Shown in pieces: positions 9,046 through 51,049 of a stretch of 64,000 bases of DNA; the stretch's first letter is position 1, and every line of letters begins with the position of its first letter. The notes under the pieces are model-generated. The model did no database searches. It was not told the origin of the DNA and saw nothing but the letters and a program-made list of their open reading frames with translations. A program made the position numbers and the translations under genes. Source of the DNA: Anaerolineales bacterium (GTDB taxonomy: Bacteria > Chloroflexota > Anaerolineae > Anaerolineales > Anaerolineaceae); NCBI GenBank assembly GCA_020060485.1, contig JAGVAB010000070.1:1-64000 (forward strand), read 5' to 3'.

Positions 9046-10932
9046 ATGTATGGCTATAGTGGAAAGATACTGCATGTTGATCTGAAGGAAAAAAAGAATT
9101 GGGTAGAGGAGAAACCAGAGTCATGGTACAAGATTTATATTGGTGGCGTTTCCATGGCCACCCGCCTTTGCTGGGAGAACATTGAACCTGGTTGTGATCC
9201 TCTTGGCCCGGGCAATCCAATTTGCATTGCCAATGGGATTTTTGCCGGCACACCAGTTCCTGTTGGGGGAAAATACGGTTTGGCCTCAAAATCACCGCTC
9301 ACCGGTTTGATCGGAGACAGTCTTTCGGGCAGCTGGTTTAGCGTTGCCCTTAAACGCGCCGGTTGGGATGGGATCGTGGTACATAACAGCAGCGATGAAT
9401 GGGTTTACCTCTTCATTGATGATAACCGCGTGCAATTTCGCAGTGCAAAAAAATTGATAGGAATGGGCACTTTCGAGACGGAAGAAGCGATCCGGGAAGA
9501 GCTTGGGGATGACCAGGTGCGTTCGGCCACTATTGGCGCATGTGGTGAAAACCTTGTCCTGTTTGCCAATGTGACCAATGATGGCCGGCAGGCAGGGCGA
9601 ACTGGTCACGGTGCGGTCTGGGGCTCAAAAAAGATTAAGGCTATTTCAGTGCGCGGCACACATGGGGTGAGCGTGGCAGATCCGCAGACGCTGCTTAAAC
9701 TCTCTTTTGATATCACTGAGGCCGCACAAGGGCCGCACACCTCCAAGTACCGCTTACTGGGCACATCCACCAATGTACTGAACATGAACCAGCTTGGCCT
9801 GCTGCCAACCCGCAACTATCAGGAGGGTTGGTTTGAAGATGCCGAATTGGTCAGCGGGGAATACCTTGACGAACATCATAAAGTAAAGGTTGTAGCATGC
9901 GCACAATGCCCAATCGCCTGTGAGCAAATGTCTGTTGTTCGTGATGGGCCTTATGAAGGAGCAATGACGGGCATTGAGTATGAATGCCTGTTCGCTATGA
10001 GTTCCAATTGCGGCATCAGCGACATGCGAGCAGCAATTAAAATGATTTCTATTTGCGATGAAAATGGTATGGATGCCATGAGCGGCGGCGTGACGGTATC
10101 CTGGACAATGGAATCCTTTGAACGCGGCGTCTTCAAAAAAGAAGATTTCAAGTGCAAGAAATACCCTGAAGGTTTTGAACCCAATTTTGGCAACGGCGAA
10201 GCCGGTGTAACTTTACTGGAAATGATCCGCGATCGAGAAGGAATTGGCGACAGGCTGGCATTGGGCACGAAACGCGCCAGCGCCATAACAGACAAGGAAC
10301 GCGGCAGTGAGACCTACAAGTGGGCAATGAACTCAAAAGGTCTGGAAGCTCCCGGTTATGATGCCCGAGGCCTGAAAACCTTTGCTGTCGGTCTGGCTGC
10401 CGGTACACGTGGTGGCTGCCACAATCGCTCAGCAGCTTACGATGCAGATATCAAGGGCGATGTTGACCGATTTACAATCGACAACACCCGCGGCGAGGTT
10501 GCCAAAGAAGCAGAAGAATATGCGGCAGTTTATGATACTCTGCCGCTGTGCAAGTTTATTCGCCGCTGTTTCACTGGAAAAGCCGACCGTTCAGGAGCAT
10601 GGCCCACGATTGCCAGCCTGATCAATGCTACAACTGGTTGGGAATTCGGCTATGATGATATCGATCTGATTGGGGCGCGTGCTCACACCATTAAAAAGGC
10701 CTTCAATATTCGTGAAGGCTGGAAGCGCTCTGATGATGACCTGCCCTACCGTTGGAAGCATGATCCCATGACCAAAGGCGCATCCGCAGGGCATGTGGTT
10801 TCAGACGAAGAATTGGTTCAGCTCCTTGATATGTATTATGAAGCCAAAGGCTGGACAAAAGAAGGGTTGATCCCCAAAGAGCAATTGGTTTCCTTGGGAA
10901 TGCCAGACGTAGCAGAAGCGATCGGCGTTTAG
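9046..10932 (+). CDS. Tungsten-dependent aldehyde:ferredoxin oxidoreductase family protein
   Basis: The protein has 628 residues, AOR family length. The N-terminal domain (about 1-205) begins MYGYSGKILHVDL and contains the GKYGLASKSPLTG and GRTGHGAVWGSKK pterin-binding stretches. The 4Fe-4S cluster ligands are C285, C288 and C292 (CAQCPIAC) and C502 (TLPLCKF), nearly the numbering of the Pyrococcus enzyme. It should oxidise an aldehyde to an acid or run in reverse with low-potential electrons. The substrate is not evident. BamB, the benzoyl-CoA reductase subunit, belongs to the same family and cannot be fully excluded. AAGGAG precedes the ATG. Downstream electron-transfer genes suggest the electrons go to an Hdr/hydrogenase complex. 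Confidence 0.88.
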   Translation: MYGYSGKILHVDLKEKKNWVEEKPESWYKIYIGGVSMATRLCWENIEPGCDPLGPGNPICIANGIFAGTPVPVGGKYGLASKSPLTGLIGDSLSGSWFSVALKRAGWDGIVVHNSSDEWVYLFIDDNRVQFRSAKKLIGMGTFETEEAIREELGDDQVRSATIGACGENLVLFANVTNDGRQAGRTGHGAVWGSKKIKAISVRGTHGVSVADPQTLLKLSFDITEAAQGPHTSKYRLLGTSTNVLNMNQLGLLPTRNYQEGWFEDAELVSGEYLDEHHKVKVVACAQCPIACEQMSVVRDGPYEGAMTGIEYECLFAMSSNCGISDMRAAIKMISICDENGMDAMSGGVTVSWTMESFERGVFKKEDFKCKKYPEGFEPNFGNGEAGVTLLEMIRDREGIGDRLALGTKRASAITDKERGSETYKWAMNSKGLEAPGYDARGLKTFAVGLAAGTRGGCHNRSAAYDADIKGDVDRFTIDNTRGEVAKEAEEYAAVYDTLPLCKFIRRCFTGKADRSGAWPTIASLINATTGWEFGYDDIDLIGARAHTIKKAFNIREGWKRSDDDLPYRWKHDPMTKGASAGHVVSDEELVQLLDMYYEAKGWTKEGLIPKEQLVSLGMPDVAEAIGV

Positions 10933-10959
10933 TGTTGGTAATAGACGAAGGAGAAAATC

Positions 10960-11448
10960 ATGGCAACCTCAACTTCCAAATATAAGTATATTGCCTGCGA
11001 CCCACAAAAATGTGTTGGCTGTCAGTTGTGCGAATACATTTGTTCTTACACAAAAACGGGGGAATTCAATACATATCGCAGCCGCATTCGCACAGTGCGC
11101 GCAGAAGAAGTGTTGATCACTGCGATCGCCTGCCGCACCTGCGAAGATGCGCCCTGTGTCATTGCCTGCACCCGGGATGCCCTTACCCAGGATCCTGAGA
11201 CAGGCATCATTCGGATCGACCCAAGCCGTTGTGATGGCTGTGCCTGGTGCATTGAGGCATGTGATTTCGGCGCAATTTCCATCAATCCGGCTTCCAAGCT
11301 GGCTGAAATGTGTGACCAGTGCGAAGACGTGGAAGGCGGCCCGCAGTGTGTGATCTGGTGCCCGAAGGATGCACTGGAATTAACCACGCCAGATCAGCGC
11401 GCCCAGAAAGCGCGTCACAAACTTGCAACGGAAGATACACTCAAATAG
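10960..11448 (+). CDS. 4Fe-4S electron-transfer protein (HycB/CooF/BamC type)
   Basis: The protein has 162 residues with four cysteine clusters for cubane centres: CVGCQLCEYIC, CRTCEDAPCVIAC, CDGCAWCIEAC and CDQCEDVEGGPQCVIWC. This is the DMSO reductase beta-subunit/HycB arrangement. It probably wires the AOR to the Hdr subunits encoded next. It lies 27 bp after the AOR gene with its own GGAG. Confidence 0.88.
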   Translation: MATSTSKYKYIACDPQKCVGCQLCEYICSYTKTGEFNTYRSRIRTVRAEEVLITAIACRTCEDAPCVIACTRDALTQDPETGIIRIDPSRCDGCAWCIEACDFGAISINPASKLAEMCDQCEDVEGGPQCVIWCPKDALELTTPDQRAQKARHKLATEDTLK

Positions 11449-11506
11449 CTGGGTACGTGAACCCACAAAGAATCTGTCAAACCGTCTTAGAACCAAGAGG
11501 AGCCAG

Positions 11507-14020
11507 ATGACCGAAAACATAGGCAATGAAGAGCTCCGCATCGGCGTATATATCTGTCACTGCGGCAGCAATATTGCAGGGGTAATTGACCCCAAGGCAG
11601 TGGTGGAATTTAGCGAAGGGCTTCCTGGTGTGGTGCGTGCCACCGACACGCTCTACGCCTGTGCCGACAGCGGGCAACGTTTGATCAAGGAAGATATCCA
11701 GAAATATGGACTGAACCGGGTGGTGGTTTCAGCCTGTTCCGTGCGTATGCATGAGCCAACATTCCGCGCTGCGGTTTCTGAAGCGGGATTGAATCCTTTC
11801 CTGATGGAAATGGCAAATATTCGTGAGCAATGCACCTGGGCGCATGGACATGACCCGGAAGGCGCACTGAAGAAGGCCAAAGACCTGACTGCTGCGGCCA
11901 TAGCCAAATCCAGCTTCCTCACTCCCCTGGACATGATCAAGGTGCCCGTGACCAAGAGGGCTATGGTGATCGGCGGCGGTGTAGCCGGTATCAGCGCTGC
12001 CCTCGACCTTGCCGACCAGGGCATCAAGACCATCCTTGTTGAAAAAGAACCGACCATTGGCGGGGTGATGGCTCAGCTCAACAAGACCTTCCCCACCATG
12101 GATTGCAGTATATGAATTCTTGCACCAAAAATGGTTGACGCGGCGCGTCACCCCAACGTAGAAATTCGAGCATATACTGAGGTTGAGCGGATTGATGGCT
12201 TTGTAGGCAATTTCAAGGTCCAACTCCGCGAGAAAGCAAAATACGTACTGGCTGACCGCTGTAACGGCTGCGGTGACTGCGCTAAAGCCTGTCCCATCGA
12301 AGTGCCTAATTACTTCGAAATGGACCTGGCACCGCGCAAGGCTGCCTATGTGCCCATGAGCCAGTCGGTTCCCTTGATTTACAATATCGATATGGACGCC
12401 TGCATCCACTGTTACAAGTGTGTGGATGCCTGTGGCAAGCTGGAAGCCATCGATTTTGCAATGGAAGACAAACTGGTATGGGAAGATATTGGGGCAATTA
12501 TCCTGGCAACCGGGTATACACATTTTGATGCTACGCTGATCCCGGAATATGGATATGGGCGTTTTCCAAATGTAATCACTTCCATGGAAATGGAGCGACT
12601 GAACAATTCGGCCGGCCCGACCGCCGGTGATCTGGTGCGTCCCAGCGACAACACCAACCCCAAGCGCATGGCTTTCATCAATTGTGTGGGATCGCGGGAT
12701 AAACGATTCTACCCGTGGTGCTCCAACTTCTGCTGCATGTACTCGATCAAGAATGCAGTACTGCTCAAGCAGATGTACCCGGACAGCGATATCACCATCT
12801 ATTACATGGACATTCGCACCCCCTCAAAGGGCTATGAAGAATTCTACGACCGGGCGCGTGAAATGGGAGTTCATTTCATTCAGGGACGTCCCAGCCTGAT
12901 CACAGAAGACGAAGTCACCCATAATCTGTATGTGCATTCGGAAGATGTGTCCCTTGGAAAAGTGATCGAGCATGAATACGATATGGTCATGCTGAACCAG
13001 GCAGCCATCCCGCAGCTCGATCAGAATTTAATGAGTTCTTTAACGAACGCATCACAGAGCCCTGGCGGCTGGTTCATGGAATACCATCCCAAGCTGCGTC
13101 CGATGGACAGTCCTACCGATGGTGTTTTCCTGGCGGGTGCCTGCCAGGGACCTAAAGATATCCCCAGCAGTGTTGCCCAGGGCTCAGCCGCTGCTTCACG
13201 GGCTGGCCGCATTCTCCATTCTGATGAATGGGAGATCGAGCCTATTGTAGCTTTTGTGTGGGAAGATCGTTGTGTCAGTGCCGATGGAAAGAAGTGCGGG
13301 ATTTGTTCCCAAGCATGCCCTTATGGTGCCATTGAATATCAGCAGGGGCAGGCGGCTGAGGTTATCACTGCCAAATGCCATGGATGTGGCGGCTGTGTGG
13401 CAGAATGCCCGCATAACGCCATAACCCAACTTCACTTTACCGATGCCCAGGTACTGGCGCAAATCCATGCCTTGTTGGCTGAAAAGCCGGAAGAAAAGAT
13501 ACTTGCCTTCCGCTGTCACTGGTGCTCCTATGGTGGAGCCGACCTGGCAGGAACCAGCCACTTTGAATATACAGCCAATGAACGCGGCTTGCGGGTGATG
13601 TGTTCTGCCCGTATGGATAACGACTTCATCTACGAAGCATTCAAGCTGGGCGCTGGCGCGGTTTTATACTCCGGCTGTCATCCGCAAGACTGCCATTACA
13701 TCACAGGCCAAATCGTTGGCGCAACTCGCGCGGACCGCTTGCAAAAAGCTTTCGAGAAAATGGAGATGACCCCCGGACGCTTCCGGGTGGAATGGATTAG
13801 CGCGGCCGAGGGTGATAAATACGCTCGCGTGCTGAATGAAATGCAGGCCGTTTTGGACGATTTGCCAAAAGAAAAATTGATGGCAGAAATTGAAAGTTTG
13901 CGCCCAACCATGGAGAAGCGCGCCCACCGTCTGCGGGACGTGCCTGGCGTAGAAGCAGCCTATGATTTCTCCGAAAAGATTGAGAAGATCATGATCCAGG
14001 AGGACGCACATGAGTCATAG
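11507..14020 (+). CDS. hdrA: HdrA-MvhD fusion, selenocysteine-containing (UGA at 12113)
   Basis: Read through an in-frame TGA at 12113-12115, this is one gene of 837 residues. The reading frame continues unbroken, and the flanking residues (TMDCSI, then ILAPKMV) match the HdrA block that normally reads CSxCILAPKM, so TGA replaces a cysteine codon as Sec203. Order of parts: N-terminal HdrA domain, FAD-binding GGGVAGISAAL near 155-165, Sec203, ferredoxin CNGCGDCAKACP and CIHCYKCVDAC, the HdrA cluster motif C-x11-C-x3-CC starting at C393, further ferredoxin clusters near 590-630, then an MvhD domain (FRCHWCSYGGAD) from about 660. HdrA is the flavin that bifurcates electrons. HdrA selenoproteins are known from Methanococcus. 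The start is chosen at ATG 11507 after AAGAGGAG. Confidence 0.9.
12113..12155 (+). promoter_or_regulatory. Selenocysteine UGA codon with bacterial SECIS-like hairpin
   Basis: TGA at 12113-12115 is followed by a hairpin with a 6-bp perfect stem (12136-12141 with 12145-12150), extended below by a mismatch and two G-C pairs. Its apical loop is GGC. The loop begins 26 nt after the UGA with G in the first position. Both features meet the usual description of bacterial SECIS elements, which sit directly downstream in the coding region. The structure was folded by eye. Confidence 0.7.
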
Positions 14021-14972
14021 CCTCCACGCTCCAGAAACCTTTGCTGACCGGGTGCGCAGTATTCCCGGTGGAGAACATCTTGAACTTTGCTATTCATGTG
14101 GCACATGTGTATCCAAATGCCTGATCCAGCAAAAAATGGAGCCTGAATATAACCCCCGCCGCCTGCTGCGAATGGTCATGATGGGCATGGAGCAGGAAGC
14201 TTTTGAAAGCCCAACCACCTGGCTATGCTCCGCCTGCGATCTGTGTTACCCGGCCTGTCCACAGCAGATCCACATCTCCGGTGTGATTGGGGCTGTGAAA
14301 AGCCTGGCGGTTGAGAAGGGCCTCTCCTCGCCACTGGATACAGTGGTGGTGGACGAAGTTCTATGCTCTGGCTGCGGCATATGCGTGATGGCCTGCCCCT
14401 ATGAGGCTCCACATCTGATCGAAAAAGCGGTTGACGGCAAAATGGACCGTTTCTCCGAAGTGGATGTTAATCGTTGTATGGGCTGCGGCATTTGCGTGGC
14501 CGCCTGCCCGATGGGTGCCATCGCCCGTGAGGGCGTCAGTAATACCGAGATCGCCCAGCAAATCCCTTACCAGGTTGCTGAAACCAGCACCCCCTCAATG
14601 GTGGTCTTTATCTGTGATTGGTGTTTGCGGGCAGACACTGATCTGGAATTACTTGAAAGCTATCCTGACAATGTAAGCATCATTCATATCCCTTGTTCGG
14701 GACGCATTGATCCTCAAATGGCTTTGCTGGCGCTGCGTTCAGGCATCTCGGGGGTGCTGGTATGCGGTTGCCAACCCGGTGAATGTCATTACCAACGCGG
14801 AACAGATGTAGCAACCTGCAAGATCAGTCTTTTGGACCGTATGTTCGGGCAGATGGATTTAGCGGACGGCAGGGTACGCTTTGTGCAAATTGGTACCCAG
14901 GACCGCGGCCGCATTCGCAAGGAAGTGGACCAAATGCTCAGCCATCTGACAGCAATCCAGGAGGTACACTAA
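14010..14972 (+). CDS. HdrC-ferredoxin-MvhD fusion protein
   Basis: The protein has 320 residues. Residues 1-110 resemble HdrC, with two cysteine clusters (CYSCGTCVSKC and CSACDLCYPAC). Residues 110-175 carry two ferredoxin clusters (CSGCGICVMACP and CMGCGICVAACP). From about 195 an MvhD-like domain begins (VVFICDWC), with CQPGECHY near residue 255. It would link the hydrogenase to HdrA. The start overlaps the end of hdrA by 11 bp and AGGAGG precedes it. No CCG-type HdrB domain is present here or next door, so the classic HdrB catalytic subunit is missing. Confidence 0.82.
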   Translation: MSHSLHAPETFADRVRSIPGGEHLELCYSCGTCVSKCLIQQKMEPEYNPRRLLRMVMMGMEQEAFESPTTWLCSACDLCYPACPQQIHISGVIGAVKSLAVEKGLSSPLDTVVVDEVLCSGCGICVMACPYEAPHLIEKAVDGKMDRFSEVDVNRCMGCGICVAACPMGAIAREGVSNTEIAQQIPYQVAETSTPSMVVFICDWCLRADTDLELLESYPDNVSIIHIPCSGRIDPQMALLALRSGISGVLVCGCQPGECHYQRGTDVATCKISLLDRMFGQMDLADGRVRFVQIGTQDRGRIRKEVDQMLSHLTAIQEVH

Positions 14973-15946
14973 TGGCAGACAAACCAAAAATCGCCTTCTA
15001 CTGGGCTGCAAGTTGTGGCGGCTGCGAAATTACGATCACCGAGCTTGGTATGCGTTTGATCGATATCGGCGACCAGGTGGACATTGTATTTTGGCCTTGT
15101 GCCATGGATTTTAAATACGACGATGTGCGCGCCTTGCAAGACAAAGAAATCGATATTTGTTTTTTCAATGGTGCTATTCGCAATACCGAGAACGAAGAAA
15201 TAGCACATTTGCTGCGACAGAAATCAAAAGTAATGGTGGCCTTCGGTGCCTGCTCACACCTGGGCGGAATTCCGGGACTGGCCAATTTGGCTGATACTGA
15301 ATCGATCATCCAGCGCGTGTATTGCACCACACCTTCGCTGGACGAGACGCGCGGCACCCTGCCACAAATTTCCTGTGAAGTACCAGAAGGCCGGATAACC
15401 ATCCCTGAGATGTATGACCATGTGAAAACCTTGGCGCAAACCGTTGAGGTGGATTACTTTATGCCCGGCTGCCCGCCTGTTGTTGACCAGGTTTGGACTG
15501 TAATGCAAATTGTACTGGCTGGCGAACTTCCCGAGGCGGGCGCCACGATTGGCGTGGACGAGAAGACCAATTGTGATGTCTGCCCCCGTCAAAAAGGGCG
15601 TAGCGGTCTGCGCATCAAAGAATTCAAACGCCCGCACGAAGTAGAATTGGATCCTGAGACCTGTTTTTTGGCGCAAGGGATCATCTGCTGTGGCCCCGCC
15701 ACACGCTCTGGTTGCGGTTTGCCATGTCTTACTGCCAATATGCCCTGCAGAGGCTGCTACGGGCCTCCTGAGGGCGTTACAGACCAGGGTAGCAAGCTGC
15801 TCAGCGCCGTGGCAGCCTTGATCGACACCGATGACCCGGCTGAACTACAGCGAATCCTGGATACGGTCGTTGATCCTGTCGGCACTTTTTACCGGTTCAG
15901 TCTGGCAGATTCCATCCTGAGTGAGCTGAAACACAACCGCTCATGA
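14972..15946 (+). CDS. mvhG: [NiFe] hydrogenase small subunit, MvhG type
   Basis: The protein has 324 residues. The N-terminal WAASCGGCEI motif binds the proximal 4Fe-4S cluster. Other cysteines (FGACSH, MPGCPP, and a C-terminal cysteine-rich part with CCGPATRSGC and CRGC) suit the F420-non-reducing, group 3 MvhG family. There is no Tat signal or membrane segment, so it is cytoplasmic. The ATG shares one base with the stop of the preceding gene. GGAGG lies upstream. The reading frame is open further upstream but that part overlaps the HdrC gene. Confidence 0.88.
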   Translation: MADKPKIAFYWAASCGGCEITITELGMRLIDIGDQVDIVFWPCAMDFKYDDVRALQDKEIDICFFNGAIRNTENEEIAHLLRQKSKVMVAFGACSHLGGIPGLANLADTESIIQRVYCTTPSLDETRGTLPQISCEVPEGRITIPEMYDHVKTLAQTVEVDYFMPGCPPVVDQVWTVMQIVLAGELPEAGATIGVDEKTNCDVCPRQKGRSGLRIKEFKRPHEVELDPETCFLAQGIICCGPATRSGCGLPCLTANMPCRGCYGPPEGVTDQGSKLLSAVAALIDTDDPAELQRILDTVVDPVGTFYRFSLADSILSELKHNRS

Positions 15947-15982
15947 AGAATGACGGCTGACCAGAAAGACAGGTGTAAATTT

Positions 15983-17449
15983 ATGAAAACGAAGATATCT
16001 GTAGATCCGATCACTCGCCTGGAAGGGCATGGGCGCATTGACCTTTTTCTGAATGACGAGGGCGGCTTGGAAAACGCCTACATGATCGTGCCGGAGTTAC
16101 GCGGATTCGAGAAATTCTGTGAAAACCGCCCGGTGGAAGAAATGCCGCGCATTACCCAGCGGATTTGCGGTGTGTGCCCAGTGGCTCACCATCTTGCCGC
16201 CGCCAAAGCTGGCGACGCAGTTTATCATGTTGACCCCCCGCCCGCTGCCAAAAAGATACGCGAACTGATGAACTCCGCCTTTTTTGTGGCCGACCACGCC
16301 ACCCATTTTTATGTGTTGGGCGGCCCCGACTTTATCGTAGGGCCAGACGCCCCCAAAAGCGAACGCAATATTTTGGGGGTGGTGCGCAAGGTGGGCCGAG
16401 AGATTGGCGCCCGTGTCATGGAATTGTTGAAGGACAATCACGAGATATGCGCCATTATTGGGGGCAGGTACATCCACTCTGTGGGGGCCATTGTAGGCGG
16501 CGTGAGCAAACCGCTGACCAAAGAAAATCAAGCCAGGATTCTGGAACTGGCAAAGAAGTCAGTTGAAACTGCCAAATTCACCCTGGAACTATTCAACAAG
16601 ATCGTTCTGGAAAACAAAGAATATCTTGACCTGATCCTGAGTGATGCTTTTCTGCACCGTACTTATTACATGGGACTGGTGGATGAAAACAACAAGGTTA
16701 ATTTCTATGACGGCAAAGTGCGCGTGGTTGGACCGGATGGCACAGAGCTGCTAAAATATGGCCCCAGCGAATATCTGGATGTCATTGCAGAACATATTGA
16801 ACCCTGGACCTACTTGAAATTCCCCTATCTGAAGAAAGTGGGCTGGAAAGGTCTGGTGGATGGCCCCGATAGCGGCGTTTATCGCGCCTCGCCGCTTGGC
16901 CGTCTGAATGTTTCTGATGGCATGGCTACTCCTTTTGCCCAGGCTGAGTATGAACGCTTCTTCGCTACCCTGGGTGGGAAGCCGGTGCATTCCACACTGG
17001 CAACTCACTGGGCGCGTCTGGTTGAACTGCTATACGCAGCTGAGCGGTCTGTGGAGCTTGCCCTGGATGACGAGATCACTAGTGACAATTACAGAACCAT
17101 CCCCACCGAAACACCGGATGAAGGCGTCGGTATCATCGAGGCACCGCGCGGCACGCTGACCCACCATTACACTACAGATGATCGTGGTCTGCTTAAGAGT
17201 GTGAACTTGATCGTGGGCACAACCAACAACTATGCGGCCATTGATATGTCGATCAAGAAAGCAGCGCAAAGTTTGATCGTTGCCGGCCAACCGGTTAGTG
17301 ATACTGTGCTCAACAAGATCGAAATGGCCTTTCGCACCTACGACCCATGCCTGGGGTGCGCCACGCACCCTACCACAGGAGAATCGCCGCTGCTGGTCAA
17401 GGTTTTTGATCACAACCGCACTCTTGTTCAAGAGATCCGGCGAGACTAG
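15983..17449 (+). CDS. mvhA: [NiFe] hydrogenase large subunit, MvhA type
   Basis: The protein has 488 residues. The four nickel ligands are present: RICGVCP near residues 60-66 and DPCLGCATH near 454-462. The N-terminal ITRLEGHG is also typical. It should oxidise H2 or make it in the cytoplasm, with MvhG passing electrons to MvhD and HdrA. After the second CxxC and its histidine, about 26 further residues may be removed in maturation. The ATG at 15983 is chosen because AGGTG lies before it and the family starts here. An upstream ATG at 15950 lacks support. Confidence 0.9.
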   Translation: MKTKISVDPITRLEGHGRIDLFLNDEGGLENAYMIVPELRGFEKFCENRPVEEMPRITQRICGVCPVAHHLAAAKAGDAVYHVDPPPAAKKIRELMNSAFFVADHATHFYVLGGPDFIVGPDAPKSERNILGVVRKVGREIGARVMELLKDNHEICAIIGGRYIHSVGAIVGGVSKPLTKENQARILELAKKSVETAKFTLELFNKIVLENKEYLDLILSDAFLHRTYYMGLVDENNKVNFYDGKVRVVGPDGTELLKYGPSEYLDVIAEHIEPWTYLKFPYLKKVGWKGLVDGPDSGVYRASPLGRLNVSDGMATPFAQAEYERFFATLGGKPVHSTLATHWARLVELLYAAERSVELALDDEITSDNYRTIPTETPDEGVGIIEAPRGTLTHHYTTDDRGLLKSVNLIVGTTNNYAAIDMSIKKAAQSLIVAGQPVSDTVLNKIEMAFRTYDPCLGCATHPTTGESPLLVKVFDHNRTLVQEIRRD

Positions 17450-17457
17450 GAGATATC

Positions 17458-18423
17458 ATGAGCGCGCGAGGAATGACACAGAAAACACGGACTGAACATA
17501 AGATTGTACTGGAAAGGCCAATGGTCACCCGCCATTATGTGATGACGTGGAATCTCGATTATTGCGTTGGCTGCGAAATTGGTCCCCTTGCTTGTCCCAA
17601 GGATGCCATCACCCATGTGGATGGCGAACTGCTGGATGGCCGGCTGGTCAGCAAGCAAAGCGTGGATATTGACCCGGAAAAATGTGTGCTATGCGGGATA
17701 TGTGAAGTCATGTGCCCCAAGAACGCCATTTCGATGACGATCAATGGCGTGGAAGAGAATCCGGCCCTCAAATACGGAGCATTTCCTGAATTGATCCAGT
17801 CCACGATCTTTGAAAAAGACGGTTTCAATTGGGAACTGAAAGATTTTGTCATCTCCAATTGTCCAACCCAGGTCATCAGCTACAGCGAGGAAGAGAACAC
17901 CCTGCTGGTGGACGATGCGCACTGCATACGCTGTCGGCAGTGTGAAATTGCCAGTGATGGCGCCTTTACTGTACAGCAGCCCTGGCAGGGCAAGGTTGAA
18001 TTGCACAGGGAGCTTTGTGTTGAGGGCTGCAAAGCATGCGCCGACATTTGCCCAACCCGTGCCTTGCACATCGGTGAAGATAATCAACTTGTGTTGGCCG
18101 ATTATTATTGCATCAAATGTGGAGCATGTATGCAGGTATGTCCAGTTAAAAGGGAGTATGAAGAGACAGAAGTGACCTACCAGGCATCCGGGATGGAGAT
18201 TAAACGCCAGCACAAGAAGGTCACCAACCAGGACCAACTTCCCATTTGGGTGGAACGCTGGCGCATTGGCCATGAGCCGGTGGAGAGCGGGTCATGGATT
18301 GAGGCATTGAGAAAGCTGGCAGATGACAAAGCCGGTATGCTCGAGCTGGATAAAAAGCGCGCCCTGCGCCGCCGCGACTTGCTCAAGGCCTTGCCAGGGA
18401 GCAAGGCTTTACTGGAGAAGTAA
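17458..18423 (+). CDS. Polyferredoxin of the Hdr-hydrogenase operon
   Basis: The protein has 321 residues with several cysteine groups: CVGCEIGPLACP near residue 36, CVLCGICEVMCP near 77, CIRCRQC near 157, CVEGCKACADICP and CIKCGACMQVCP in the 185-230 range. Some clusters have irregular spacing, so not all may bind 4Fe-4S. The C-terminal 80 residues are charged and helical. It is the last gene of the operon, 8 bp after mvhA, and a terminator follows. It may pass electrons to or from free ferredoxin. Confidence 0.8.
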   Translation: MSARGMTQKTRTEHKIVLERPMVTRHYVMTWNLDYCVGCEIGPLACPKDAITHVDGELLDGRLVSKQSVDIDPEKCVLCGICEVMCPKNAISMTINGVEENPALKYGAFPELIQSTIFEKDGFNWELKDFVISNCPTQVISYSEEENTLLVDDAHCIRCRQCEIASDGAFTVQQPWQGKVELHRELCVEGCKACADICPTRALHIGEDNQLVLADYYCIKCGACMQVCPVKREYEETEVTYQASGMEIKRQHKKVTNQDQLPIWVERWRIGHEPVESGSWIEALRKLADDKAGMLELDKKRALRRRDLLKALPGSKALLEK

Positions 18424-18459: not shown

Positions 18460-18492
18460 AAAGCAGCGATGGTATCCGTCGCTGCTTTTATG
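18460..18492 (+). terminator. Terminator of the AOR-Hdr-Mvh operon
   Basis: A perfect 10-bp stem (18460-18469 with 18479-18488) has a 9-nt loop and is followed by a T-rich stretch. It lies 36 bp after the polyferredoxin stop. Confidence 0.8.
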
Positions 18493-30251: not shown

Positions 30252-32507
30252 TCACTGCGCGCGGGATAAGCCTTGCAATATCCTTTCGGCGTTGATAGGC
30301 AGCGATCTGACCCGTACCCCGGTGGCGCTGAATACAGCATTGGCAATTGCCGGTGCAGTGGGCACCAATACGATCTCGCCAACTCCTTTTGCGCCATGTG
30401 GCCCACTGGCTTCTGGTATCTCAAGGATGGTGCTTTCGATTTGGGGCATGTCTTTGGTGGTGGCAAGCAAATATTCGGTGAAGCTATCCACCCATTGCCC
30501 GTTTTGCTTTAAGGCAACATCTTCCAGGATGGCATAGCCCAAACCAGTAGCAGCTCCTCCCTCAATTTGCCCTTCAACGCCCAGTCGGTTGATTACTTTT
30601 CCTACGTCGTTAATCGTGACCAGATGCGTTACCTGAATTGTGCCCAAATCCTGATTGACTTCCACTCGGGCAACGTTGGACGCAAAAACGAACATGACGT
30701 GCGGTAAGCCAATCGGCAAATGATCCGGTGTTTTTTCTTTTGGATATGGAAAACTGAAAGACCCTTCCTGTTTGATAAACTGTCCTTCCTCTGCCAGGCG
30801 GCTGGTGATCTCGCCCACCGCGACAGAGGCTCCATTCTTTTGCAGGATTTTTCCCTCTGCATAATCCAGCAGCTCAATCGATGTGTTCAATAACCGGGCA
30901 GCTTCATTCAGTAGTTGCTGTTTGATTCCTTCTGCCGCCTGAATGATCGCATTACCAGCCATGTATGTCATTCGCGAGGCGCAGGCTACGCCGCCATTCG
31001 GAGTAACGCTGGTATCAACAAACACTGTTTCAATGTGTTCGTATGGGATTTCCAGTGCCTCGGCGGCGATCTGTTCTGCAGCAACTGCCAGCCCCTGACC
31101 CAAATCCGGTGCGCCAAGGTATAGCCTCACCCTTCCATCCAGCAGCCACTCCAATGTATGGCTTATCGTATCCGGCACCCCCGCCCCCAGGCCCATACTT
31201 TGCATGGCAAGCGCCATTCCCACACCAGCCGTCTTGCCCGGTCTTGCAGGAATGTTTTCCAGTTGTTTTCGGGCTTCGCGTGCTTTTTCGATGCATGCCG
31301 GCAAGGCGGATGCAGTCGCATCAAGCGGAACACGGGTGAAGAGATGATCACCAGGCTTCAGGATGTTCTGCTGTCGCAAATCGATGGGATCCATGCCGAT
31401 TTTCTCAGCAATGATGTCGATCAGGCTCTCAATGGCAAAGTGGGATTGCGGAGCCCCAAAACCGCGCATTGCCCCCGAAAGCGGGCTGTTGGTCAAGACC
31501 ACATAGGTATCCACTTGGACATTAGGTATTTGATATGAGCCGGCCAAAGTTTCAGTGAGAATTGAAGCTACAGCCGGTCCGTAGGAAGCATAAGCCCCGG
31601 TATCCATCACTGCCTTTGCTTTGAGGGCTGTGATTTTGCCATTCTTCTTTACGCCAACTTTATAAAAAAATTGAGCTGGGTGTCTTTTGGGATGGGCCAC
31701 AAAAGATTCGTGCCGCGCATTCACCAATTGAACGGTCGAGCGGGTCATCCAGGCACCCAGGGCGGCCAGCACCTGTAATTCAGGGTCTTCCTTTCCTCCA
31801 AACGCTCCACCTACCACTGCACTTTTGACCCTCACCAGGTGTTCATCGATGCCCAGGACACGGGCAATGGTTTTACGGTCTTCAAAAGGTTCTTGCGAAC
31901 TAACCCATACTGTCAGTGTGCCATCCGGATTGTAGACCGCCAGGGAACTTTCGGGTTCCATATATCCTGGTGAAACACGCTGGACACTGAACTGCTCCTC
32001 AATGATCAGGTCGGCTTGAGCAAATCCTTCCTGTATATCTCCATTGCAAATATCGTATTTGGTGATCAGATTCCCTGATGGCTGCACTTTCGGCGATTCA
32101 GGCTGCAAAGCTAGAACGGGGTCAAAGACCGGGGTCAGCGTTTCGTAGGTTACCCGAATTTTCTCGGCGGCTTTTTTTGCAGCGGCGCGTGTGTTAGCTA
32201 TGATCAAAGCTACAGGTTCACCGATATGCCGTACCACTTGATGTGCAAGCGCCGGCTGATCCTGGATCAAGGCGCCATGTGTAATTTCACCGGGTATATC
32301 GGCAGATGTCAATACGGCCACAACATCGGGCATTTCTTTGGCCGCCTGGGAATTGACAGCAAGAAGTCTGGCCGAATGTTCGTTTGACCGCAAAACATAG
32401 CCATACAGCATGTTCTGGGTCTTAATGTCCGCAACATATTTTGCTTTACCTGTAGCTTTATCATAAGCGTCTTTTCGAATGACACGTTCTCCAAGGTTAC
32501 CGGCCAT
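30252..32507 (-). CDS. Xanthine dehydrogenase-family molybdopterin-binding subunit
   Basis: The protein has about 751 residues. It is the large subunit of a molybdenum hydroxylase that oxidises an N-heterocycle or aldehyde. GGAFGGKED near residue 235 and the active-site glutamate in GAKGVGE near 709 are present. The substrate is unknown. ATG at 32507 (MAGNLGERV) is chosen because GGAGG lies 8 nt before it. The gene overlaps the 2Fe-2S subunit gene and ends the operon. The protein is similar in layout to the other two large subunits in the window. Confidence 0.9.
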   Translation of the reverse strand: MAGNLGERVIRKDAYDKATGKAKYVADIKTQNMLYGYVLRSNEHSARLLAVNSQAAKEMPDVVAVLTSADIPGEITHGALIQDQPALAHQVVRHIGEPVALIIANTRAAAKKAAEKIRVTYETLTPVFDPVLALQPESPKVQPSGNLITKYDICNGDIQEGFAQADLIIEEQFSVQRVSPGYMEPESSLAVYNPDGTLTVWVSSQEPFEDRKTIARVLGIDEHLVRVKSAVVGGAFGGKEDPELQVLAALGAWMTRSTVQLVNARHESFVAHPKRHPAQFFYKVGVKKNGKITALKAKAVMDTGAYASYGPAVASILTETLAGSYQIPNVQVDTYVVLTNSPLSGAMRGFGAPQSHFAIESLIDIIAEKIGMDPIDLRQQNILKPGDHLFTRVPLDATASALPACIEKAREARKQLENIPARPGKTAGVGMALAMQSMGLGAGVPDTISHTLEWLLDGRVRLYLGAPDLGQGLAVAAEQIAAEALEIPYEHIETVFVDTSVTPNGGVACASRMTYMAGNAIIQAAEGIKQQLLNEAARLLNTSIELLDYAEGKILQKNGASVAVGEITSRLAEEGQFIKQEGSFSFPYPKEKTPDHLPIGLPHVMFVFASNVARVEVNQDLGTIQVTHLVTINDVGKVINRLGVEGQIEGGAATGLGYAILEDVALKQNGQWVDSFTEYLLATTKDMPQIESTILEIPEASGPHGAKGVGEIVLVPTAPAIANAVFSATGVRVRSLPINAERILQGLSRAQ

Positions 32508-32982
32508 CGCCATCACCTCCGTTGGATGCAAGACTGACCGCCTCGATCATTTTCTTGTATCCGGTACAGCGACACAAGTTGCCGGATAAAGCTTCCTTGA
32601 TCTCCGCTTCCACGGGGTAAGGGTTCTCATCCAATAAAGCTTTTGCTGCCATGATGGCGCCTGGGGTGCAGTAGCCACATTGAATGGCTCCGGTTTCAAT
32701 GAAAGCTTGCTGCAAGGGGTGCAAACGATCCCCCTGATCCAAACCTTCAATGGTCTCGATGGTAGCCTGGTCTGCCTGCCCGGCAAGCACCATACAGGCA
32801 TTAACCGCTTTTCCATTCATGATGACCGTACACGCACCGCATTCACCCTCCCCGCCGCACGCATCTTTTACCCCGGTTAGATCTAGCTCATCTCGCAAAA
32901 TATCCAGCAAGGTCAGATTGGCTGCGCAATTCAAGGCCACCAGGCTCCCATTAACCGTTAGTTCAATGGAAATCACATTCAT
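32497..32982 (-). CDS. Molybdenum hydroxylase 2Fe-2S subunit
   Basis: The protein has 161 residues. The first cluster motif is CGGEGECGACTV with the following cysteine near residue 62. The second cluster comes from CGYCTPG and CRCTGY in the helical C-terminal domain. It carries electrons from the molybdenum site to FAD. It overlaps the FAD subunit gene by 4 bp. Confidence 0.92.
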   Translation of the reverse strand: MNVISIELTVNGSLVALNCAANLTLLDILRDELDLTGVKDACGGEGECGACTVIMNGKAVNACMVLAGQADQATIETIEGLDQGDRLHPLQQAFIETGAIQCGYCTPGAIMAAKALLDENPYPVEAEIKEALSGNLCRCTGYKKMIEAVSLASNGGDGDGR

Positions 32983-42011: not shown

Positions 42012-43352
42012 TTATTCACCTATCTTCAGGAATTTCTGATAGTCCTCTGGGGTGTCGATGTCCAGCAAGTCCTCGGAGCGGTTCCACGCCAGCCATTTGA
42101 GCGGATACCTGGCCAGGATCGCCCTTCCACCCTGGTCCCCCTCGATTTCCATCAAAGCGGTGAAATATTTGCGATCAAAAAGAACCGGGGAGGAAGGATG
42201 CGCATCCACCCTTGGAACAATATTATACAATTTGTTTCTGGAGTGAAGGTCAATTTCAGCTTCAATAAGGCCAACCGGTACCCTCGGCTGATCTGCTTGC
42301 AAGATGATACACCCGCCGCAGTTTGTCGGAAGGATGTTCTGCATGCCAACGCGCAAGGAACTGCTCTGCCCGCTTTCCCAATTCTGGTTCTCCACAAACT
42401 GTACCTCCAGCCCTTTGAGAGACTCCCGGATTGGTTGCACGGTTGCCCCTAAAACCACAACCAGGGGTTCAAGCCCGGCAGCCAGTGAGGTTTTGGCTAC
42501 ATGACGGATAAACGACTCCCCATTCCATTCCAGCAAACTCTTGGGCTGACCAAATCGGGTCGCACCTCCCGCTGCCAGAATAATGCCCGCTGTGCGTTCA
42601 GCACAATACAAAGTGTCATCCTGCCCGGATGCCTGATGAAACGAGGTCACCAGGGCCATATCATACACGCCTACCAGGTGCTTGGCGAGAGAAATAGCCT
42701 GTGCAAGCCGCTCCGCATCGTCTGCCTGGTTTAGCAATGCGATGCGCCGCGCTCCGCGCGGTATCCCCTTTAATCCCCCATCGGGATGAACAAACATATT
42801 TGCCAAAACCTGCTGCGTCAAGGGTTGATTTTCTTCCACGCCGGTGATCTGGGCAAAAACTGGAAAACGATGCACGCTTGTGTCATTGGCGGGCAAGCCC
42901 AGGCAGGACAAACCAACCGAAACCGCAACTGCTATTGTCCATTCAGGGATAACCGGCTCATTTGTTGCTGGTGCTTTTATCGGCAATTTCCGTGAGCCGT
43001 CGGCTTCGATTAACAAAGGCATGCCTGCCTGATCAGCGAATTGCTTGAGGCCACTCAGTACCTTGTTTGTGACCGAGCCCAGGCGGCCATCCGCATGAGC
43101 CAGACCAGTTACCAGAACAACCCGACAAGAACGAAAAGCAGCTTTCAGGTCTGGCAGCGAATCATGCGGCCCAAGCGCAAAATGGACGTCCGCCAGTTCG
43201 CCTTCTTCCACTGCCAGATGCGTGGTGGTGGTTAGCAGAACGGATGCGTCATACTGCCGCGCAAGCCGGAACATGGCAGTAGTTTTTCCGCCGCTGCCCA
43301 CCAGAGCAAGGCGGTCATTTTTCTTTAAACGAATTGCATCAATAATTCTCAT
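42012..43352 (-). CDS. YqeC-MocA fusion: selenium-dependent hydroxylase accessory protein and molybdenum cofactor cytidylyl/nucleotidyltransferase
   Basis: The protein has about 446 residues. The N-terminal half (1-230) is a YqeC-like GTPase/ATPase-type domain with VGSGGKTTAMF near residue 20 and LIEADGSRKLPIKAP. The C-terminal half (about 255-446) is a MocA/MobA-type nucleotidyltransferase starting GIILAAGGATRFGQPK, with ILQADQPRV and DIDTPEDY. YqeC marks selenium-dependent molybdenum hydroxylases, and MocA makes the cytosine-dinucleotide cofactor. The fusion suggests a combined maturation step for the hydroxylases here. The start is probably at 43352. Upstream in-frame codons to 43412 fall in a repeat region. 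Confidence 0.85.
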   Translation of the reverse strand: MRIIDAIRLKKNDRLALVGSGGKTTAMFRLARQYDASVLLTTTTHLAVEEGELADVHFALGPHDSLPDLKAAFRSCRVVLVTGLAHADGRLGSVTNKVLSGLKQFADQAGMPLLIEADGSRKLPIKAPATNEPVIPEWTIAVAVSVGLSCLGLPANDTSVHRFPVFAQITGVEENQPLTQQVLANMFVHPDGGLKGIPRGARRIALLNQADDAERLAQAISLAKHLVGVYDMALVTSFHQASGQDDTLYCAERTAGIILAAGGATRFGQPKSLLEWNGESFIRHVAKTSLAAGLEPLVVVLGATVQPIRESLKGLEVQFVENQNWESGQSSSLRVGMQNILPTNCGGCIILQADQPRVPVGLIEAEIDLHSRNKLYNIVPRVDAHPSSPVLFDRKYFTALMEIEGDQGGRAILARYPLKWLAWNRSEDLLDIDTPEDYQKFLKIGE

Positions 43353-43363
43353 AGATAACGTTT

Positions 43364-43387
43364 CGGGGATGCTTTCATGCATCCCCG
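43364..43387. repeat. 9-bp perfect hairpin
   Basis: CGGGGATGC (43364-43372) and its complement (43379-43387) surround TTTCAT. It lies between the hydroxylase large subunit gene and the YqeC-MocA gene. No T-run follows on the minus strand, so it is not a clear terminator there. Confidence 0.6.
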
Positions 43388-43400
43388 ATTTGATTTTCAT

Positions 43401-43436
43401 CAAACTGCACACCGAGCTTGTCGAGGTGACAGTTTG
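43401..43436. repeat. REP-like palindrome with CGAGCTTGTCGAGG core
   Basis: A 7-bp outer stem (43401-43407 with 43430-43436) encloses an inner CACC/GGTG stem around GAGCTTGTCGA. This kind of core resembles dispersed palindromic repeats found in many genomes. No second copy was noticed in this window. Confidence 0.5.
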
Positions 43437-43442
43437 GGTTTC

Positions 43443-45662
43443 CTATATCTTCCCAAGACCTCTGAGCACTCGCTCTGGCGTGAGTGGAAATTCATCGAAC
43501 CAGACACCCGTGGCATTATACAATGCGTGGGTAACAGCTGCGGCAAATGGCAGGAAGGGCATTTCTGACATACCGCGCGCTCCCCAGGGGCCTATGGGGT
43601 CTGGATATTCGAGGATCAAGGACTCCACATGATCAGGAATGTCAAGCACCGTTGGGATGAGATAGGTGGATAATTTTTTGGTCAACACCTGTCCATCCTT
43701 CTGAATCAAATTCTCCATTAACGCATGGCCAGCCACCTGCACAACACAGCCCTCGATCTGTCCCTGCACCTGTTGAGGATTGATCGCCTTGCCAACATCA
43801 TTGGCGCAAATCACATTCAGGAGTTTGATTTGGCCGGTATCTGTATCAACTTCCAGGTCAATAACTTCAGCCACGTATCCATAGGTGAAATTCGGGAAGG
43901 AATGCCCCGTTTCAGGGTCAAAGGGTGTTGTACGCGGCGGCTCGTATTTGTAAGTTGCAATCGCCGGGCGTTCCTCGCTGCGCCATTTTTCCAGAGCTGC
44001 TTCGGCTGCACCTTTGATGGAATTCCCCGCCATGAAGGTCAGGCGGGAAGCAGATGCGCTGCCGGAATTTTCCGAGGTGGCAGTATCAGAATAGAGAACT
44101 GTGATTTTATCCTGCGGCAAATTCAACGCTTCCGCTGCCATTTGCAGAAATACGGTGTGCGCTCCCTGACCTACATCGGCTCCGGCATGGTGTAAAACAG
44201 CCTTCTCAATTTCGGCGCCGCCAGAAAGTTCTATGGTGGCTGAACATTCTTCCGGGAAGCCAAAAGAAAAGCCGACATTTTTCAGGGCGCAGGCAAAACC
44301 CTTACCGCGTTTCAGGTACCTCTTATCATTTGCGATCGCGGATAATTTTTCTTGCAATTTCCAGCCATCACTGGTTTTTTGCCAGCCGCCAGCATTTGCG
44401 CAATCTCTGATGACTTCAGGCATACTGACGCCAGGAGGTAAGGGCGTGCCTGTGTTAATTAAAGAGCCCTCTTTGACCACATTCCGCATTCGCAACTCGA
44501 CTGGATCCATCCCCAAAGCTTCGGCCAGCTTGTTGATTTGCATCTCAGCAGAAAAGGCGCCCTGCGGACCACCGAACCCGCGGAAAGCGCCATTCGGGAT
44601 AGTGTTGGTATAAATTGCATACCCGTCAATTTTTACGTTGGGTATTTCATAAGGAGCAGTACACATGACCACTGCGTTACCCAAAACCGTGGAAGACGTG
44701 TAAGCATAGGCACCCCCATCGGCATACAGAGAAACATCAGCCGCGATGATCTTGCCTTCTTTGGTTGCTCCCCAGCGAGCCTTGATATGATACGGGTGGC
44801 GTTTGCCATGCCCAATGATCGATTCTTCCCGGCTCCAGACAATCTTCACCGGACGATTAATGCCCTTCTGGTGTAAACGCCAGGCAGCAAGCGCAAGCAC
44901 GATTTGAATCGACATGTCTTCGCGCCCGCCAAAAGCGCCGCCAATAGCCGGATAAATGACCCGCACTTGATCGACGGAAAGTCCCAGTGCATGTGCGATC
45001 TCTTTTTGTTCCTCATGCACCCACTGGCCAGCTACAACCACAGTAACACGGCCTTCTTCGTCAATATACGAAACGCCAGCCTCAGGTTGCAAATAGGCAT
45101 GTTCCTGGGCAGGGGTGTGATAATCGCCTTCAATGATCACATCTGCTTCCTTGAAAGCTTCTTCTACATCACCTGTGCGAACTTTAATATGCTCCAAAAC
45201 ATTTGAACCGCGGTCTGGATGCAAAAGTTCTGTGCCAGCTTCCATAGCCTTGTGAACATCGGTTACCACCGGTAAATCTTCATAAACAACAATAATCTTG
45301 TCTCGTGCTTCAGCAGCGATCTTCTCGCTTTCTGCGACAATTAAAGCCACCTGGTCACCCACAAACCGTACCCGGTCTGCAAATTGCTTGTCTGAACCTG
45401 GGCCGCACAACACCGGCTGGTCCAGAACAATTTGACCATATTCATTAACTGGAACATCCTTGGCCGTGTAAACAGCAACCACCCCTTCGGTAGCCTCTGC
45501 AGCTGAAGTGTCAATACTTTTAATGATCGCATGCGGTCTTTCGGCAAACAGGATCTTCATATACAACTGGTTGGGAAAATCAAAATCGCCGGGGTAATAT
45601 GCTGTCCCGCTGACCTTGCCTGCTGCATCGATTCGTAGACTGGAATTGCCAATATAAGCCAT
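43443..45662 (-). CDS. Xanthine dehydrogenase-family molybdopterin-binding subunit
   Basis: The protein has about 739 residues. GGAFGGRED near residue 244 has arginine where most members have lysine. GARGMSE near 696 keeps the active-site glutamate. The substrate is unknown. ATG at 45662 has GGAGG 5 nt before it; the longer frame to 45689 is not needed. It follows the FAD/2Fe-2S gene and the small membrane protein, and the YqeC-MocA gene comes next. That context makes a selenium-dependent hydroxylase likely but does not prove it. Confidence 0.88.
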   Translation of the reverse strand: MAYIGNSSLRIDAAGKVSGTAYYPGDFDFPNQLYMKILFAERPHAIIKSIDTSAAEATEGVVAVYTAKDVPVNEYGQIVLDQPVLCGPGSDKQFADRVRFVGDQVALIVAESEKIAAEARDKIIVVYEDLPVVTDVHKAMEAGTELLHPDRGSNVLEHIKVRTGDVEEAFKEADVIIEGDYHTPAQEHAYLQPEAGVSYIDEEGRVTVVVAGQWVHEEQKEIAHALGLSVDQVRVIYPAIGGAFGGREDMSIQIVLALAAWRLHQKGINRPVKIVWSREESIIGHGKRHPYHIKARWGATKEGKIIAADVSLYADGGAYAYTSSTVLGNAVVMCTAPYEIPNVKIDGYAIYTNTIPNGAFRGFGGPQGAFSAEMQINKLAEALGMDPVELRMRNVVKEGSLINTGTPLPPGVSMPEVIRDCANAGGWQKTSDGWKLQEKLSAIANDKRYLKRGKGFACALKNVGFSFGFPEECSATIELSGGAEIEKAVLHHAGADVGQGAHTVFLQMAAEALNLPQDKITVLYSDTATSENSGSASASRLTFMAGNSIKGAAEAALEKWRSEERPAIATYKYEPPRTTPFDPETGHSFPNFTYGYVAEVIDLEVDTDTGQIKLLNVICANDVGKAINPQQVQGQIEGCVVQVAGHALMENLIQKDGQVLTKKLSTYLIPTVLDIPDHVESLILEYPDPIGPWGARGMSEMPFLPFAAAVTHALYNATGVWFDEFPLTPERVLRGLGKI

Positions 45663-45703
45663 TACTGCCTCCAATGGGTGAATATTCAATGATCACAACT
45701 GGT

Positions 45704-48653: not shown

Positions 48654-48702
48654 CTTTTCCTCCATTGTGTTAAGATAGGTCTTCTCGAATTTCTGGGCTG
48701 GG

Positions 48703-49317: not shown

Positions 49318-49318
49318 T

Positions 49319-50251: not shown

Positions 50252-50268
50252 CACAAATCGCCCTTGCC

Positions 50269-51039: not shown

Positions 51040-51049
51040 AAATGTAGAT

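What the first reader, a model, noticed from the sequence alone, without database searches (positions are those of the whole stretch)
12101..12155. In-frame UGA in HdrA, read as selenocysteine, with SECIS-like hairpin
TGA at 12113 replaces the cysteine codon in the conserved CSxCILAPKM block while the frame continues for 635 codons. A hairpin with a G-first loop begins 26 nt later in the coding sequence. Archaeal HdrA selenoproteins are known. A bacterial HdrA fused to MvhD with Sec would be a less familiar case.
Basis: partly seen in the sequence, partly recalled or inferred. Interest (0 to 1): 0.82.

Follow-up and report, generated by a model that had tools for sequence, protein, structure and literature searches.

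The report
Selenocysteine HdrA in Anaerolineae bacteria
A stop codon inside a bacterial electron-transfer gene is almost certainly read as the rare amino acid selenocysteine; this gene type was already known to do so, but here the signal is strongly conserved among many related bacteria and database gene calls cut the protein short.

Summary
ORF 11507-14020 (837 aa, HdrA fused to MvhD) has one in-frame TGA, at 12113-12115, at the second Cys of CxxC (C200-S-I-U203). A bacterial SECIS hairpin follows (12133-12152, loop GGC, 26 nt after the UGA). In 63 group-1 sequences with UGA at this site (window included) the hairpin is kept and its codons GTT GAC GCG GCG CGT are nearly frozen at synonymous positions (0.97-1.00; gene mean 0.455). 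The five group-1 relatives with a Cys codon lack the hairpin; in their genomes no selA and no selB at cut-off were found. More distant UGA paralogues carry a different hairpin with one compensated base pair. selB passes cut-off in 43 of 44 relative genomes; a strong tRNA-Sec is in 38. No genome is held for the window, so its own machinery is inferred. Bacterial Sec-HdrA (CxxU) was reported in 2006, so this is a new member of a known kind. Less expected: the operon holds a tungsten-type aldehyde oxidoreductase and [NiFe] hydrogenase but no HdrB; relatives swap the hydrogenase for other electron modules; Sec203 aligns with the Cys197 described as ligand of the partner subunit's [4Fe-4S] cluster; 119 of the 120 nearest listed database proteins look truncated at the UGA.

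The parts
11507..14020 (+). HdrA-MvhD fusion gene read through UGA, 837 aa
   Evidence: translation with TGA=U; NF040770 HdrA2 1037.8 bits and PF02662 FlpD at 665-785
12113..12115 (+). UGA, Sec203, second position of CxxU; aligns with residue 197 of PDB 5odc chain A
12133..12152 (+). bacterial SECIS hairpin GGU-U-GACGC-GGC-GCGUC-ACC, loop 12142-12144, 26 nt after the UGA
   Evidence: near-invariant core; bSECIS rule test passed by 63 of 63 UGA group-1 sequences; fold
11495..11502 (+). ribosome-binding-site-like AAGAGGAG, 4 nt before ATG 11507
   Evidence: sequence
9046..10932 (+). tungsten-type aldehyde:ferredoxin oxidoreductase (AOR) family protein
   Evidence: PF01314, PF02730; closest solved chain 1aor, 2e-105
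10960..11448 (+). 4Fe-4S ferredoxin-like subunit
14010..14972 (+). HdrC-like protein fused to an MvhD (FlpD) domain; no CCG (HdrB) domain among its Pfam matches
14972..15946 (+). MvhG-like hydrogenase small subunit (searched from 14963)
   Evidence: VhuG 204.2 bits, PF01058
15983..17449 (+). MvhA-like [NiFe] hydrogenase large subunit (searched from 15980; C-terminal DPCLGC has Cys, not Sec)
   Evidence: VhuA 375.5 bits, PF00374; sequence
17458..18423 (+). polyferredoxin
18460..18488 (+). terminator-like 13-bp hairpin after the last gene
   Evidence: 16 terminator-like sites found against a shuffled mean of 10.4 in the region

Best explanation
The gene encodes a selenoprotein HdrA fused to MvhD. 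A bacterial-type SECIS hairpin just downstream of UGA 12113 lets SelB bring Sec-tRNA(Sec) to the ribosome, so the UGA is read as Sec203 (supported by comparative sequence, not by protein chemistry). Sec203 occupies the place of Cys197 of solved HdrA, described as the residue that reaches across the HdrA dimer and supplies one ligand to the partner's N-terminal [4Fe-4S] cluster; here that ligand is most likely a selenolate (inferred from alignment). The protein probably is the flavin hub of a complex that links the AOR of the same operon to the [NiFe] hydrogenase and ferredoxin, without an HdrB disulfide site (inferred from operon content).
For: TGA is at the site in 43 of the 45 loci of the first scan; of the other two, L037 has an assembly gap (N) across the codon but keeps the hairpin and L045 starts after the site. 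The 43 include two named strains, Ornatilinea apprima P3M-1 and Pelolinea submarina MO-CFX1 (cultured, by recall). Synonymous freeze on the hairpin. bSECIS rules met by 63 of 63 group-1 UGA sequences (loop GGC or GUC, 26 nt) and by 24 of 25 more distant UGA sequences with loop GGUC at 27 nt; by 0 of 5 group-1 Cys sequences. One pair of the second hairpin goes from C-G to U-A in 6 of 21 distinct sequences. selB over cut-off in 43 of 44 relative genomes; tRNA-Sec of at least 63 bits in 38 of 44; selD in 40 of 44. The nearest relative (91%, G001) has tRNA-Sec, selB, selD and a selA fragment below cut-off. The five Cys genomes: no selA at 1e-20, no selB at cut-off, tRNA-Sec-like hits of at most 46.5 bits. 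Position 203 = 197 of 5odc; Cys197 as in-trans ligand from PMC9012536 (passages). Cys 17, 19, 52 and 77 are invariant in all rows with letters there (59-61 UGA rows, 5 Cys rows).
Against: No genome of the window's organism is held, so its sel genes are unseen. No proteomics. Folding energy is not unusual. Rfam gave no SECIS match. Only one pair of the second hairpin covaries, and the group-1 stem hardly varies, so covariation support is thin. The link with selB is not clean: G163 (group 1, UGA) has no selB at cut-off though it has selA; G054, G090 and G311 (distant UGA paralogues) have none at cut-off; and of 10 genomes with a distant Cys HdrA looked at, 6 do have selB. The five group-1 Cys genes are one clade, so one event. 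That 5odc is the very structure in which the paper numbers Cys197 is inferred from the equal number and complex.
Confidence: 0.96

Rival explanations
1. UGA is a real stop and the gene is split: a 202-aa N-terminal protein plus a protein re-initiated at ATG 12131.
For: An in-frame ATG lies 6 codons after the UGA in all 63 UGA group-1 sequences, and database gene calls fit a start there (119 of the 120 listed proteins, by length and coverage).
Against: The split falls inside the FAD domain, at a cluster-ligand Cys that Cys homologues keep in one chain (P0008); a frozen SECIS-type hairpin would be unexplained.
Confidence: 0.02
2. Sequencing error or pseudogene.
For: A lone in-frame stop.
Against: The same TGA in 62 other group-1 sequences from other genome records, two of them named strains, and no other stop inside the 837-residue frame.
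Confidence: 0.005
3. UGA is generally reassigned (for example to Trp) in this lineage.
For: None found.
Against: Other genes of the window end in TGA (MvhG at 15944, pyruvate kinase at 62152); relatives carry selB; aligned homologues have Cys.
Confidence: 0.005
4. Sec is inserted only when selenium is plentiful; under scarcity the product is mostly the truncated form, so the gene works as a selenium-dependent switch.
For: UGA recoding in vivo was reported as 30-40% efficient and dependent on selenium supply (PMC4513850, start of the abstract in the listing).
Against: Not testable here; I looked for no regulatory element other than the hairpin. Compatible with the main explanation.
Confidence: 0.1

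Closest known systems
Bacterial selenoprotein HdrA (motif CxxU)
   Same: Sec at the second position of CxxC in HdrA (motif table of PMC9312934, passage); bacterial SECIS; near hydrogenase mvh genes as in Desulfobacterium autotrophicum HdrA1 (PMC2702500, passages).
   Different: In the table rows of PMC1794560 seen the HdrA cases are Deltaproteobacteria and Clostridia; here Anaerolineae (Chloroflexota), fused to MvhD, next to an AOR, no HdrB in the operon.
HdrA2 (HdrA-MvhD fusion) of Methanosarcina acetivorans
   Same: Domain order HdrA-MvhD; 1037.8 bits to NF040770 over residues 11-787.
   Different: Below the curated cut-off of 1100; HdrA2 works with HdrB2C2 (PMC5296606, passages), no HdrB here.
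Class II benzoyl-CoA reductase (BamBCDEFGHI)
   Same: Tungsten oxidoreductase with subunits homologous to HdrA, B and C (PMC13328260, passage).
   Different: The AOR here is nearest to 1aor (2e-105) and far from benzoyl-CoA reductase 4z3w (1e-53); the operon carries MvhG and MvhA.
FlxABCD-HdrABC of Desulfovibrio (composition recalled; complex named in PMC5296606)
   Same: Many relatives carry AsrA/AsrB-like plus FlpD genes where the window has MvhG and MvhA.
   Different: No HdrB in the operon, and the window has the hydrogenase instead.
E. coli fdhF SECIS (recalled)
   Same: Bulged U in the stem and a small loop with G early.
   Different: Here a longer upper stem and a triloop.

Membership tests
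Bacterial HdrA selenoprotein | UGA at the second Cys of the CxxC motif (CxxU) | tested here: met
   C200-S-I-U203; 63 UGA group-1 sequences against 5 with Cys
Bacterial HdrA selenoprotein | bSECIS: stem of at least 4 bp, loop 3-9 nt with G in the first two places, loop 16-37 nt after the UGA (PMC13188914, passage) | tested here: met
   loop GGC, 26 nt
Bacterial HdrA selenoprotein | Cys at the position in homologues | tested here: met
   L078-L082, P0008, PDB 5odc
Bacterial HdrA selenoprotein | selA, selB, selC, selD in the same genome | tested here: inconclusive
   own genome not held; selB 43, tRNA-Sec of at least 63 bits 38, selD 40 of 44 relatives; selA searched in 11 genomes only: over cut-off in 5 of the 6 with UGA, a fragment in the sixth, none in the 5 with Cys
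Bacterial HdrA selenoprotein | Selenium in the protein | not testable with these tools
   needs mass spectrometry or 75Se labelling
HdrABC heterodisulfide reductase | HdrB (CCG domain) partner | tested here: not met
   no CCG domain in the seven operon proteins; no TIGR03288 match at 1e-5 in 4 of 5 relatives, Pelolinea submarina included; G002 has matches below cut-off. The rest of the window's own genome is unseen
HdrA | FAD-domain match and conserved cluster Cys | tested here: met
HdrA2 (NF040770) | Curated score of 1100 bits | tested here: not met
   1037.8 bits
Class II benzoyl-CoA reductase | AOR subunit closest to BamB | tested here: not met

The most novel reading that the evidence does not exclude
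HdrA(Sec)-MvhD is the hub of an HdrB-less tungsten/selenium electron-bifurcating (or confurcating) complex of Anaerolineae: an aldehyde:ferredoxin oxidoreductase is coupled through HdrA to an exchangeable electron module - a [NiFe] hydrogenase, an AsrAB/Flx-like NAD(P)H module or, in one relative, a second selenoprotein of the formate dehydrogenase type - and a selenolate of one HdrA ligates the [4Fe-4S] cluster of the other.
Probability: 0.4. Interest if true: 0.65.

Novelty: new member of a known kind. Interest (0 to 1): 0.42.

Why it matters
Gene calls cut this protein in two: 119 of the 120 nearest listed database proteins look like the piece after the UGA, so a central electron-transfer protein of these anaerobes is misread (the same misreading of hdrA is described for Methanocaldococcus, PMC12054007, passage). 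The clade offers a natural Sec/Cys comparison and a SECIS frozen almost to the last base, and it makes the role of a selenolate cluster ligand across a subunit interface testable in named strains.

Tried and rejected
Tried: Rfam on 11000-15000 (three matches up to E 10, none a SECIS). Folding energy as evidence (not significant). ARAGORN on the window (no tRNA). Literature: eight searches; no paper that I saw in listings or passages reports a Sec-HdrA in Anaerolineae. PMC4959059 (passages) and PMC5736913 (12 of 15 passages) report Sec formate dehydrogenases and hdr genes in Chloroflexi, but no Sec-HdrA in what I saw; supplements and most subscription papers were not seen. Rejected: class II benzoyl-CoA reductase (AOR type), general UGA reassignment, pseudogene, split gene. 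Not run: structure prediction (single chains would show neither dimer nor cofactors), viral, phage or plasmid scans, a covariance model.

Dropped rows: L054-L058 and L060 are second copies of loci already held and were removed before counts. L122 and L123 gave no motif and were left out of the tree, as were group-1 rows shorter than 600 residues; the tree is the quick method and its output warns of long branches. Of the 28 UGA genomes in the class comparison, G282 and G094 rest on the search table (1 TGA; position not checked). In one search sites were read only for returned loci. The bSECIS test was made before the loci onward were fetched.

Full report
What is there. The frame from ATG 11507 (AAGAGGAG at 11495-11502) to TAG 14018-14020 contains one stop, TGA at 12113-12115. 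Read as Sec it gives 837 residues. HMM hits cover HdrA (NF040770, 1037.8 bits) and a C-terminal MvhD/FlpD domain (PF02662 at 665-785). The TGA stands at the second Cys of CSICILAPKM. A hairpin follows, GGU-U-GACGC/GCGUC-ACC around the loop GGC, the loop starting 26 nt after the UGA.

Relatives. A scan of genome contigs gave 45 relatives; every title names Chloroflexi/Chloroflexota, Anaerolineae, Anaerolineales, Anaerolineaceae, Ornatilinea, Pelolinea or Mesolinea. TGA is at the site in 43. L037 has Ns across the codon and the intact hairpin behind them; L045 starts after the site. A search of 249 genomes of the class of Pelolinea submarina added UGA orthologues down to 63% identity and five Cys orthologues at 58-59%. 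The de-duplicated group-1 set is 63 UGA sequences (window included) and 5 Cys sequences. The Cys sequences (L078-L082) have TGC or TGT and a different following sequence. In a draw of 301 genomes of the phylum, 34 had a match at 1e-180; four of these were group 1, all with TGA (these four genomes were already in the set).

The hairpin is under selection as RNA. Over the 63 UGA sequences the mean synonymous-codon identity in 7-codon windows is 0.455 (sd 0.077); the maximum, 0.952, is at codons +6 to +12; single codons +7 to +11 are GTT 62 of 63 (GTG 1), GAC 63, GCG 63, GCG 61 (TCG 2), CGT 63. The two TCG cases turn the loop from GGC to GUC, which keeps the G[G/U] rule. By the published bSECIS constraints (PMC13188914, passage) all 63 pass. 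Of 25 UGA genes among more distant HdrA paralogues, 24 show a 7-8 bp stem with loop GGUC at 27 nt and one (L095, one broken pair) only a 4-bp alternative. None of the 5 group-1 Cys genes passes. Of 13 other Cys genes 4 show nothing and 9 a 4-5 bp hairpin of varying place and loop, so a bare minimum hairpin is not rare by chance. In the 25 distant UGA genes one pair changes C-G to U-A in 6 of 21 distinct sequences (99.3% of cells paired, slid versions 16-57%; shuffles as high: 0 of 500 for cells changed on both sides, 468 of 500 for pairs changed on both sides). These 25 lie in three separate tree clades with Cys genes between them, and the whole tree needs at least 4 changes between Sec and Cys. 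Against the hairpin: the thermodynamic z-score is unremarkable and Rfam has no hit.

Machinery. No genome is held for the window. In 44 relative genomes: selB over the curated cut-off in 43; tRNA-Sec of at least 63 bits in 38. Rfam's cut-off is passed in 40, but the same search rings in all 14 control genomes (over cut-off in 5), so the 47-51-bit hits are probably other long tRNAs and only the high scores are used. selD in 40; in 31 genomes a selD match itself contains one TGA, position not checked. The five Cys genomes: no selA at 1e-20, selB best E from 1.5e-43 to 5e-27 (below cut-off), tRNA-Sec at most 46.5 bits. Of 28 UGA genomes in the class sample, 26 have a selB best E of 2.3e-87 or lower, G262 has 6.4e-72 (borderline), and G163 has none at cut-off though selA is there. 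Fisher p is 2.5e-5 (27 of 28 against 0 of 5) or 8.8e-5 (26 of 28), but the five Cys genes form one clade, so this is one event; selB is over the cut-off in 203 of the 249 genomes. Distant paralogues do not follow the rule closely: G054, G090 and G311 have UGA without selB at cut-off, and, of 12 genomes, 10 had a Cys HdrA at the site (6 with selB, 4 without) and 2 had UGA (1 with, 1 without). A Cys copy does not require loss of selB.

Selenium use inside the window. The same 64 kb carries a YqeC (selenium cofactor) protein fused to a MobA-like domain (TIGR03172, 161.5 bits against a cut-off of 73.05), SsnA (TIGR03314, 460.7 against 455.5) and three molybdenum hydroxylases that match selenium-dependent xanthine dehydrogenase below its cut-off (781, 505 and 463 bits against 830). 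So the organism very probably makes selenophosphate (inference).

Function. The operon 9046-18423 reads AOR, ferredoxin, HdrA(U)-MvhD, HdrC-MvhD, MvhG, MvhA, polyferredoxin, followed by a terminator-like hairpin. None of the seven proteins has an HdrB (CCG) domain. HdrB (TIGR03288) is absent at 1e-5 from 4 of 5 relatives searched, including the complete genome of Pelolinea submarina; G002 has four hits below the cut-off (188, 175, 142, 59 bits); the search rings in 6 of 14 control genomes. Of 69 sequences examined for the module after HdrA, 20 (window included) have Mvh genes, 26 an AsrA/AsrB-type (Flx-like) module, 1 both, 22 neither. Of these 22, 18 are loci under 8 kb. One of the 22, L007, reaches the polyferredoxin and holds instead a formate-dehydrogenase-type molybdopterin oxidoreductase with its own in-frame TGA before His (L007:6939). 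Sec203 aligns, without gaps from query residue 8 on, to residue 197 of PDB 5odc chain A. A paper describes Cys197 of one HdrA as ligand of the N-terminal [4Fe-4S] cluster of the other HdrA in the solved HdrABC-MvhADG complex (PMC9012536, passages); that its numbering is that of 5odc is inferred. The N-terminal Cys 17, 19, 52 and 77 are invariant where present. Hence the most likely role of Sec203 is a selenolate ligand in trans; that it tunes potential or speed is inference. What the AOR acts on is unknown.

Novelty. Bacterial Sec-HdrA was reported in 2006 (16 HdrA selenoproteins; PMC1794560, passages), the motif CxxU is tabulated (PMC9312934, passage), and a 2026 review discusses Sec-HdrA and hdrA operons (PMC13188914, passages). 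The words Chloroflexi and Anaerolinea do not occur in the main texts of the two reviews. It is therefore a new member of a known kind; the HdrB-less AOR setting is the less familiar part. In the protein database 7970 proteins matched at 1e-100 and 120 are listed: 119 of these cover 73-75% of the query at 620-642 aa and carry the C-terminal but not the FAD Pfam domains, as expected for a start after the UGA; only P0008 (65%, Cys at the site) is full length.

Counts and ranges were re-read from the calls; L037 and L007 were examined.

Noticed in passing
42012-43412 (-); 51752-53104 (-); 30252-32531 (-), 43443-45689 (-), 53116-55914 (-): YqeC-MobA fusion, SsnA and three xanthine-dehydrogenase-type molybdenum hydroxylases: signs of a second selenium-use trait (selenium cofactor) in the same window.
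   Followed up: partly
L084-L097, L103, L107, L109, L110, L112, L114, L116-L120: 25 more distant Sec-HdrA genes (motif CS[ITA]UILGPKM) in three tree clades share one conserved hairpin GGATG[C/T]C-GGTC-G[G/A]CATCC, although Cys genes lie between them on the tree.
   Followed up: partly
L034:12507-16355; L007:5675-8594; window 14972-17449: Module swap at one operon position: [NiFe] hydrogenase (MvhGA), AsrA/AsrB-like NAD(P)H module with FlpD, or (L007) a formate-dehydrogenase-type enzyme with its own in-frame TGA at L007:6939.
   Followed up: partly
codons +7 to +11 after the UGA, window 12134-12148: The peptide VDAAR of Sec HdrA replaces VDVGK/VDVSK of the Cys clade: the RNA hairpin seems to dictate the protein sequence.
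   Followed up: no
48703-51742 (-); 47655-48728 (-): Coenzyme F420 genes cofC, cofD, cofE and npdG in a row, with a luciferase-like monooxygenase beside them.
   Followed up: no
G001, G003, G011, G015, G017, G019, G020, G029: Two SelD forms in one genome: a TGA-free one in a frame of about 735-796 aa (possibly a fusion) and a short one with an internal TGA.
   Followed up: no
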